A DNA stretch of 64,000 nucleotides from the NCBI GenBank assembly GCA_026874595.1, contig CM049309.1, positions 55,092,079 to 55,156,078 of the forward strand. The letters run 5' to 3'. How positions within the stretch are numbered: the stretch's first letter is position 1; each line of letters begins with the position of its first letter. Made by a program: the position numbers and the translations under genes. Positions 20,001-23,000 of the stretch are shown piece by piece. The notes under the pieces are model-generated. The model was given only the letters and a program-made list of their open reading frames with translations, searched no databases and was not told the DNA's origin. Source of the DNA: Sipunculus nudus. Its lineage: Eukaryota; Annelida; Sipuncula; Golfingiida; Sipunculidae.

Positions 20001-23000
20001 CAGGTAACCTCAAGAGAACATTAATATTAATGTGAACAAGAGAAGTGTGTCATGCCTTCCCCTACCTGTTTGTCGCTTGACATGATGAATTATTACACTG
20101 ACTGCATCATCAAGGATGGACTTGTCCTTGTAGATGTATGATAAATGTGGTCCGCTCAAGTCCACGCCTCCTTCAGGGGCCTGCTCATTTCTCTGAAATA
20201 ATACATTAAAATATAAGCTGCAATATAGTTTTGTTTTACAAACAGACTGCCAGTAAAGCTTAATAAGAGCTGACTTATACATTTTCTGAACATATCAAAG
20301 ATATATTAGCAAACCTTAGGTACATCTAAAGTAAGACAAAGCAGAACATGCATATTTTGGCATCATGTTCCAGGGTGCGCTAATCCATATTAGATATGAT
20401 TCGCAGTTTACCAACACACACCTATCACTTATAAAACTGCATATCATTAACTTAATGATTTTTTTAAAGAACTTTTTACCTTGTCAAAGATCAGGTAACA
20501 TAACAAAGAGAACTTCATTTAATATGAACAACTCACCTCATCATATATGGCTTCTATTTCATTGAGCAGGGCCTTGGATCGGATGGATTTGGTATCATTC
20601 TGTTTAAAACTGATGCCCTGATGGTCAAGGGACTTTATATAATACTTTTCATTCTGGTCTCGCCAGATTTTGTTGAACCCCCTTTGTGCCTCTCGCCACT
20701 CCTCGTCTTTGGATTTTAACCTTCTAAGGACCAGCGGTACAGCCACTATGGGGTTTTTCTTCAAACCATCTATAATATCAGGTGCTTTATCACCATATAT
20801 CCTACAAGAAAAGTGAAAACTTTAGTTTGGAGATATTTAACCATATAAAAATACAAGTCAGTATGAACAAGTCTGTATATCTGATAGGTGTTTAGTGGAT
20901 TAACTTGTTCCTCCCAAGAGTATTTAATTTACTTTATCCATCACAAGTATGCCTGACTTAAGCGCTGACATAATGATATCAATCTCAAAGGGTTTTGCTT
21001 AACACAAGTATCAAAAAGTATGGAAAAAGTTACTGAAAAGGACAAAAACCAACTAGAGCTGACCTGCTTTTGTGTAGATCTCTCCAACGCAGTAGATAAA
21101 ATACACTGACAGGACACAGATAATTATATTATCATTAACAAATAAATAACTGCCGAGCTAAACTGAAAACACTCAACTTTCATGCAAACACCATGATAAT
21201 AAAGATAATGCTTTCTTCTGTATAGCTTAAATTTTTCTGTTTCTGCCAGTCCTGCTTTACCTCTGCATGGCTAAATTTTGTTTCTGTAAGGCCTGCTCAA
21301 CCTCTGCATGGCTTATTTTTTCTGTTTCTGTCAGTCCTGTTTTACCTGTGCATGGCTTAATTTTGCTTCTGTACGGCCTGTTTTACCTCTGCATGGCTTA
21401 ATTTTGTTTCTGTAAGGCCTGCTTTACCTCAGTATGGCTTAATTTTGATTGATTTTATCAGTCCACTTTATCTCTGTATGATTTAATTTTGATTTTTTTC
21501 TGTCAGCCCTCCTTTACTTCATTATGACTTAATTTTTACTCTTCCTGCAATGCCTGCTTTACCTCTGTATGGCTTTGCGATGCAGTACTTCTGAGCTGCC
21601 CCCCATACAATTATCAAGCCGGAACTTAGCCGCTTCCTCTGATGACATGCGTGTTAGTTTCTTCTGTACACCCTCCAGTACCCGGATGGTGGCCAAGTTG
21701 TTCTCAATCACCACATCAAGCTGTAAGAATACATATATGTTATGAATATATCCTCAAATCTCACACCACAAAATCCATCAGACTCAACATCAGACTTGAT
21801 ACTACAAGATATGCATCTCAACATCTGCAATAAATCTGTAACTAATCTAGTCCTCTAAAAATAACACTTTCTATTTATCTCAGATGCTGAAGAAGAACTG
21901 TTCTATTGTGAATAACAAATTTATGTTGAGTTATCCTTAATTCAAGGTCATTATCAGTTAACTAATTTTATTTACATAAGTCTGTTAATGTAGCAGGTTT
22001 CTGATTTATATATCATAGAGTGAACTAGCAATGGTGTGGTGTTAGCAAGAGCATTGTCTCACAAACTTTTAACAATTTTACTTATCATAACTAATCAATC
22101 TATACAGTAAGGAAAAGATAATTGAATGTTTTTTTCATTTTCATATTCTATCTCTCCCTACTGCTACCCAAAGGTAGCTCAATACACACACACACATACA
22201 ACCACACACAGAAACTTGGATAAAGGAAATGACACACAACATTGATAAACCACAGGTTACAAAACATCAAAGTAATTACTGGAGACCAGTTTTTTTACTG
22301 CCAAGATCAATCAGCTCAGCATTGCTTTATGAGCAAAATTTAGATACACCTTTTAGTGTATAGTGTATATAGTAATTCTAAGGATTATCTATTTTATCTT
22401 TTTGAATTTGTTTTGTATCTTGGAATTCACTATATGAAGGTATTTCCTGATCCACTGTATTATGTTTACAGAAAGAGAAAACTGATCCTTAAGCAAGAAA
22501 GATAACTTTTATTAATCCCTTGCAAGGATATTAATAGCTGGCCAGTTTCCAAATACTACCTGGAACCTTTCATCCTCGATGCGGTAGATATATTCTTCGT
22601 ACTGGGTCTTGCGTGATGTGACAAAACTAGAATCTTCTGACCAGCTTGGGAAGGACACCCATGTATCGTTTAAAACCTGGAGGGTCACAAAATAAGAAAA
22701 CACTGGACTAGCAAAACCTGACCCATACCAAGCCTGAGCCAGCAGGTGGCAGGACATACCTCGAAGCGTTCATCTTCACAGCGATAGATGTGCTCCTCAA
22801 ATTGCGTCTTCTTAGAACTGACGAAAGTGGAGTCTTCTGACCATGAGGGAAACGACACCCACGTGTCATTCAACACCTGCATGGCAGTCACAAATGTGTG
22901 CACATCAACAATTTATCCCGAATCACACAGGTAAATTGTCACGTCACAACATCTATTCAGCCCTTATACTAATTTTAACAATTAAGCATTTTAAGAATAT

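What the first reader, a model, noticed from the sequence alone, without database searches (positions are those of the whole stretch)
22560..22876. Tandemly duplicated SIN3 exon 11 in the HDAC-interaction domain: a likely mutually exclusive exon pair
Two 117-nt exons lie 83 nt apart, both phase 0-0, both with intact AG and GT sites. They share 32 of 39 residues, and at the 30 shared residues whose codons can vary, 20 codons differ synonymously. That pattern means old duplication with both copies kept under protein-level selection. Copy 11a equals the vertebrate sequence except one Phe/Tyr; 11b changes K/R, H/Y, C/I and E/Q in a block otherwise frozen across animals. The short spacer may block joining of both. 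A splice choice inside the domain that holds the deacetylase would give two corepressor forms. I know of no description of this for SIN3, but I could not search.
Basis: partly seen in the sequence, partly recalled or inferred. Interest (0 to 1): 0.92.

Follow-up and report, generated by a model that had tools for sequence, protein, structure and literature searches.

The report
Duplicated deacetylase-control exon in SIN3
An animal gene for the gene-silencing protein SIN3 carries two old, well-kept, interchangeable versions of the one exon that reaches into and switches on its partner deacetylase, so the animal probably makes two kinds of silencing complex by choosing one exon or the other; no RNA data have yet shown this.

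Summary
On the minus strand, inside a frame-consistent SIN3 gene, exon 11 exists twice: 11a (22876-22760) and 11b (22676-22560). Each copy is 117 nt, phase 0-0, with AG/GT sites, and 83 nt separate them. They share 32 of 39 residues, but their synonymous codons are fully randomised (20 differ, 18.6 expected for unrelated codons). Pairwise omega is below about 0.03, and a model with one copy decaying is rejected (2dlnL 41). A decayed partial copy of exon 20 in the same gene shows what loss looks like.

New here: published SIN3-HDAC structures place this exon exactly on the segment that controls the enzyme. It encodes the gate loop, which enters the catalytic tunnel, and the acidic triad, which occupies the HDAC basic patch in place of inositol phosphate. 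Exon 11b neutralises one triad residue (E to Q; human SIN3B E461) and changes the gate-loop anchor position (yeast R799) from K to R.

Mutually exclusive use is the best reading, but transcripts and relatives could not be examined. The proposed steric block is not supported: the best branch point lies 67 nt from the donor, above the ~50-nt limit. All four splice outcomes stay in frame, so regulation must act on splicing itself.

The parts
22760..22876 (-). SIN3 exon 11a (canonical copy): [39 protein letters not shown]; gate loop + acidic triad E34/D35/E39
22677..22759 (-). 83-nt spacer (intron between 11a and 11b); GT...AG; retention would give an early stop; best branch-point candidate is the A at intron position 67
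22560..22676 (-). SIN3 exon 11b (variant copy): [39 protein letters not shown]; carries K22R and E39Q; weakest donor of 20 in the gene (CAG|GTAGTA)
23939..24036 (-). SIN3 exon 10 (constitutive upstream partner), ends ...SGRTQLCRE|, phase 0
21563..21720 (-). SIN3 exon 12 (constitutive downstream partner), begins |LDVVIENN, phase 0
13832..40246 (-). SIN3 gene body modelled here: 20 exon positions (21 exons with both copies of exon 11) from PAH1 to the stop codon; frame verified from 37977 to 13832; Pfam PAH, Sin3_corepress, Sin3a_C

Best explanation
This is an ancient tandem duplication of one SIN3 exon whose two copies are used as alternatives, most likely one per transcript (exon 10-11a-12 or 10-11b-12). 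Shown: two intact copies, matching frames, strong purifying selection on both, and an exact match of the exon to the part of SIN3 that contacts and regulates the deacetylase. Inferred: the copies are chosen one at a time, by regulated splice-site recognition rather than by a too-short intron. Inferred effect: both forms keep the residues that hold the deacetylase (V1, L2, D4), plug its tunnel (E14, D15, F18) and touch its basic patch (E34, D35). Form 11b lacks the third acidic charge (E39Q). It also has altered gate-loop neighbours (T17S, S20T), K22R (a gate-loop position anchored to Rco1 in yeast) and C33I next to the triad. The choice would therefore tune deacetylase activation or substrate gating, giving two graded corepressor forms rather than an on/off switch.
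For: Intact copies with matched length, phase and splice sites. Codon model: omega upper 95% bound about 0.03; omega 0.5 (one copy neutral) rejected with 2dlnL = 41, omega 1 with 59; dS lower bound about 4.5. Synonymous codons as different as unrelated draws: 20 against 18.6 expected. Both copies hit Pfam Sin3_corepress at 1e-38 to 1e-39. The exon aligns without gaps to human SIN3B 423-461. Residue names from three published structures match the expected letters at all 16 positions checked (PMC10156912; PMC10115800; PMC10709384). The decayed exon-20 partial copy, with lost AG and an in-frame stop, is an internal contrast. Same length, same phase, adjacency and similarity are the published predictors of mutually exclusive exons (PMC3228551, title).
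Against: No transcript evidence. No relative could be searched: scans of GTDB genomes and IMG/VR found nothing, as expected for an animal gene. No structural cause of exclusivity was found: the best branch point is 67 nt from the donor, no RNA pairing exceeds shuffles, and both-inclusion stays in frame. The 11b donor is the weakest of 20, so 11b may be a minor form. The yeast structure paper names only the equivalents of E34 and D35 as basic-patch contacts, so the effect of E39Q may be small.
Confidence: 0.7

Rival explanations
1. Both exons are normally spliced in together, giving a SIN3 with a 39-residue tandem repeat (two gate loops and two triads).
For: All combinations are in frame. The 11a donor is the third strongest of 20 and the 11b acceptor is mid-ranked; the spacer has a usable branch point at position 67.
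Against: The region is collinear and ungapped between human SIN3B and both copies, with one extra residue in fungi. A second copy would push the triad away from the deacetylase. Structural arguments of this kind are used in the mutually exclusive exon literature (PMC5740500).
Confidence: 0.07
2. 11b is a duplicate exon that is included rarely or not at all and is losing function.
For: 11b has the weakest donor in the gene. It has more unique changes than 11a (5 against 1, not significant, p = 0.22), including loss of an invariant acidic residue.
Against: omega 0.5 is rejected with 2dlnL 41. There is no stop, frameshift or lost splice site despite saturated synonymous sites. The truly decayed partial copy of exon 20 looks quite different. 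A very recent loss of use cannot be excluded.
Confidence: 0.08
3. The two exons are alternatives but not strictly exclusive: a cassette pair in which one, both or neither appear in a tissue-dependent mix, with skipped or double forms used as regulation.
For: No exclusivity device was found: no frame penalty, no steric block, no U12 sites, no RNA pairing above shuffles.
Against: Skipping removes the gate loop and triad, and double inclusion inserts 39 residues into a conserved domain; both are likely harmful. Old homologous tandem exons in other genes are mostly used as substitutions (PMC9741552).
Confidence: 0.14
4. Assembly artefact, such as a collapsed haplotype or misjoined paralogue.
For: Nothing specific; a single assembly only.
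Against: 32% nucleotide divergence, no similarity in the flanking introns above shuffles, a continuous gene on both sides with a clean frame, no Ns.
Confidence: 0.01

Closest known systems
Mutually exclusive tandem-duplicated exons in general (human set, PMC5740500; human and fly set, PMC9741552)
   Same: Adjacent homologous exons of equal length and phase, ancient, under protein-level selection, replacing one segment of a folded domain.
   Different: Neither paper's main text mentions SIN3. Exclusivity is not shown here. The examples and enriched classes in the passages read are mostly channels, transporters, muscle or synapse genes, not corepressors.
coq-2 exons 6a/6e in nematodes, flatworms, annelids and molluscs (PMC7434440)
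   Same: A same-length exon pair with few residue changes in a conserved core, altering an enzyme's output; two changes are diagnostic across species.
   Different: That case has RNA-seq and deletion data, and changes the enzyme itself. Here the changed part is the activator of a partner enzyme and nothing has been tested.
OGDH exons 4a/4b (PMC7969005)
   Same: Exon pair separated by a short intron, changing the regulation of a conserved enzyme complex.
   Different: OGDH uses branch points 25-41 nt from the donor, below the steric limit. Here the best branch point is at 67 nt, so that mechanism is not supported.
Known SIN3 isoforms (fly SIN3 187/190/220, mammalian SIN3A9, SIN3B short form; review PMC5902990)
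   Same: Alternative splicing of SIN3 makes functionally distinct corepressors.
   Different: Those described in the passages read differ at the C terminus, carry a 9-residue insert, or are truncated. None swaps the gate-loop/acidic-triad segment.

Membership tests
SIN3 corepressor family | Sin3_corepress, PAH and Sin3a_C domains | tested here: met
   Pfam PF08295 E 5e-41, PF16879 E 6e-70, PF02671 E 1e-19; human SIN3B E 2e-129
SIN3 corepressor family | Gate loop (E436/D437/F440 of SIN3B) and acidic triad (E456/D457/E461) | tested here: met
   All six present in 11a; five of six in 11b, where E461 is Q
Mutually exclusive exon pair | Adjacent internal exons of equal length and reading phase with sequence homology | tested here: met
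   117 nt each, phase 0-0, 82% protein identity
Mutually exclusive exon pair | Both copies under purifying selection | tested here: met
   omega below about 0.03; omega 0.5 rejected
Mutually exclusive exon pair | Exactly one copy in each mature transcript | not testable with these tools
   No RNA data held
Mutually exclusive exon pair | Conserved across related species | not testable with these tools
   No animal genomes held; scans of prokaryote and viral sets empty
Steric-exclusion type (donor to branch point under ~50 nt) | Branch point closer than ~50 nt to the upstream donor | tested here: not met
   Best candidate at position 67, the only full yUnAy; AGs at 25, 41, 51 and 56 argue against earlier ones. 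Consensus prediction only.
U2/U12 incompatibility type | U12-type site at one of the introns | tested here: not met
   All sites GT-AG with U2-like donors
Competing RNA structure type | Strong pairing between the spacer and flanking introns | tested here: inconclusive
   No pairing stronger than shuffles; a single sequence has no covariation power

The most novel reading that the evidence does not exclude
The splice choice resets how SIN3 activates its deacetylase. Form 11b, with a weakened acidic triad and a fungal-type gate-loop anchor, would leave the HDAC basic patch partly open, making the complex less active, differently selective, or newly sensitive to inositol phosphates. This would be a splicing-controlled activity setting for a histone deacetylase complex, kept for hundreds of millions of years in some invertebrates.
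Probability: 0.22. Interest if true: 0.87.

Novelty: new member of a known kind. Interest (0 to 1): 0.62.

Why it matters
SIN3 is a near-universal scaffold for class I histone deacetylases, and the residues in this exon are among those shown by cryo-EM and mutation to control the enzyme. A natural second version of just that segment is a ready-made experiment: seven substitutions, one of them in the acidic triad. If both forms are made, chromatin silencing in these animals has a splice-controlled setting not described in the held literature. The saturated synonymous sites predict that the pair is very old, which a set of related genomes and existing RNA-seq could confirm quickly.

Tried and rejected
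Exon 13 and an exon 10-11a-12 fusion found nothing in GTDB genomes or IMG/VR, as expected for an animal gene.

Own genome: not held. Rfam: no RNA family in the window.

Steric exclusion by the short spacer: considered and not supported by branch-point prediction. RNA-pairing selector/docking model: no pairing beyond shuffles. The shared TTTGTGAC upstream of both acceptors is within chance (247/500 shuffles).

Excess synonymous divergence as a sign of selection against recombination: rejected, 20 observed against 18.6 expected. Faster evolution of 11b: 5 against 1 changes, not significant.

Literature: SIN3 with mutually exclusive exons, tandem exon duplication or molluscs gave only incidental hits; only open-licence papers were searchable.

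Structure prediction was not run, because it would not discriminate the two forms.

Full report
What was checked. The finding lies in a SIN3 gene on the minus strand. I rebuilt the gene from PAH1 to the stop codon: 20 exon positions, or 21 exons counting both copies of exon 11. All exons have usable splice sites, and the frame was verified from 37977 to 13832 (the end of exon 19 is set at 16367, giving ...KIQI|FKEE). The product hits Pfam PAH, Sin3_corepress and Sin3a_C and human SIN3B at E 2e-129.

The pair. Exon 11a is 22876-22760 and 11b is 22676-22560, each 117 nt, with 83 nt between them. Exon 10 ends and exon 12 begins in phase 0, so one, both or neither copy keeps the frame; retaining the spacer gives an early stop. 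The 83-nt spacer is the shortest intron of the gene; the next shortest is 307 nt. No other whole exon is duplicated.

Selection and age. The copies share 32 of 39 residues and 80 of 117 bases; third positions agree at only 14 of 39. Given the gene's codon usage, 18.6 of 32 shared residues would use different codons if the copies were unrelated, and 20 do, so the synonymous signal is fully randomised. A pairwise codon model puts omega below about 0.03 and dS above about 4.5 at the 95% level. Omega 0.5, the value expected if one copy were drifting, loses by 2dlnL = 41. These are model-based bounds on 39 codons, but the direction is not in doubt. The duplication is inferred to be very old, at least hundreds of millions of years at ordinary rates. 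The gene holds its own contrast: a 69-bp tandem duplication copied the acceptor and start of exon 20 into intron 19. That copy has lost its AG and gained an in-frame TAA although its DNA is 80% identical.

What the exon encodes. phmmer aligns the exon without gaps to human SIN3B 423-461 and with a one-residue insertion to yeast and fission-yeast proteins. I checked 16 residues named in three structure papers against this alignment; all 16 letters fit. In human SIN3B (PMC10156912), E436 and D437 of the gate loop enter the HDAC catalytic tunnel and F440 stacks on the substrate mimic; these are exon residues 14, 15 and 18. E456, D457 and E461 form an acidic triad on the HDAC basic patch, where other complexes use inositol phosphate; these are exon residues 34, 35 and 39. 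Charge-swapping the triad compromised HDAC activity, and mutating E436/D437 abolished H3K27ac removal from nucleosomes. In fission yeast (PMC10115800), I622, L623, D625 and E657 contact the deacetylase; these are exon residues 1, 2, 4 and 35. In budding yeast (PMC10709384), R799 stabilises the gate loop through Rco1 and E811/E812 enter the basic patch; these are exon residues 22, 34 and 35.

What 11b changes. Seven positions differ: T17S, S20T, K22R, F26Y, H29Y, C33I and E39Q. At 26, 11b has the residue of SIN3B and yeast, and 11a is the odd one. At 22 and 33, 11b has the yeast residues. Accordingly 11b scores better than 11a against fungal Sin3 (68 against 59 bits for the best chain). Positions 17, 20 and 29 vary among the references. 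Only E39Q hits a residue that is glutamate in SIN3B, SIN3A, Sin3 and Pst1, and it removes one charge of the acidic triad. How much E39Q matters is open: the yeast paper does not name the equivalent residue as a contact.

How the choice could be made. The 11b donor CAG|GTAGTA is the weakest of 20 in the gene. The 11a donor ranks third, the 11b acceptor ninth and the 11a acceptor twelfth (scores from the gene's own sites). The spacer's only full branch-point match is 67 nt from the donor, and AG dinucleotides at 25, 41, 51 and 56 make earlier branch points unlikely. Published steric exclusion needs less than about 50 nt, so I do not adopt the short-spacer explanation. No U12 sites and no RNA pairing above shuffles were found. 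Because every combination is in frame, exclusivity, if real, must come from regulated recognition of the two exons; the 11b donor is the likely control point. This step is inferred.

Known or new. No searched paper describes a duplicated or mutually exclusive exon in SIN3, within open-licence full texts only. Known SIN3 isoforms differ elsewhere. As a kind of thing it is a tandem-duplicated exon pair, a well-known class; coq-2 in molluscs, annelids and helminths is the nearest analogue in design. New are the gene and the segment swapped.

Limits. The source species is unknown and its genome is not held. No animal genomes or RNA data could be searched. The claim that rests on sequence is strong: two intact, old, constrained copies. 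The claims about exclusivity and about enzyme tuning are inference.

Noticed in passing
15900-16033: 69-bp tandem duplication that copied the acceptor and first ~40 nt of SIN3 exon 20 into intron 19. The copy has lost its AG and has an in-frame stop: a decayed partial exon duplicate in the same gene.
   Followed up: yes
40821-42180 and 43491-43841: 69-bp minisatellite (about 20 and 5 copies, 94% alike) in the 5' part of SIN3. The unit is 23 codons and lacks stops, so frames of 387 to 516 residues are open on both strands, and a Q/P-rich SIN3 exon near 43.9 kb runs in frame into it.
   Followed up: partly
3565-4969, 49387-51244, ~37000-37500: About 280-bp tandem repeat family present at three places in the window in different orientations.
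   Followed up: no
24038-24107: 35-bp unit repeated twice directly against the acceptor of SIN3 exon 10, i.e. a duplicated 3' splice-site region upstream of the exon that joins 11a/11b.
   Followed up: no
8620-8895, 31171-31492, 33521-33838, 59558-59832: Four copies of a dispersed repeat with similar open frames on both strands; no Pfam match for the three frames scanned.
   Followed up: partly
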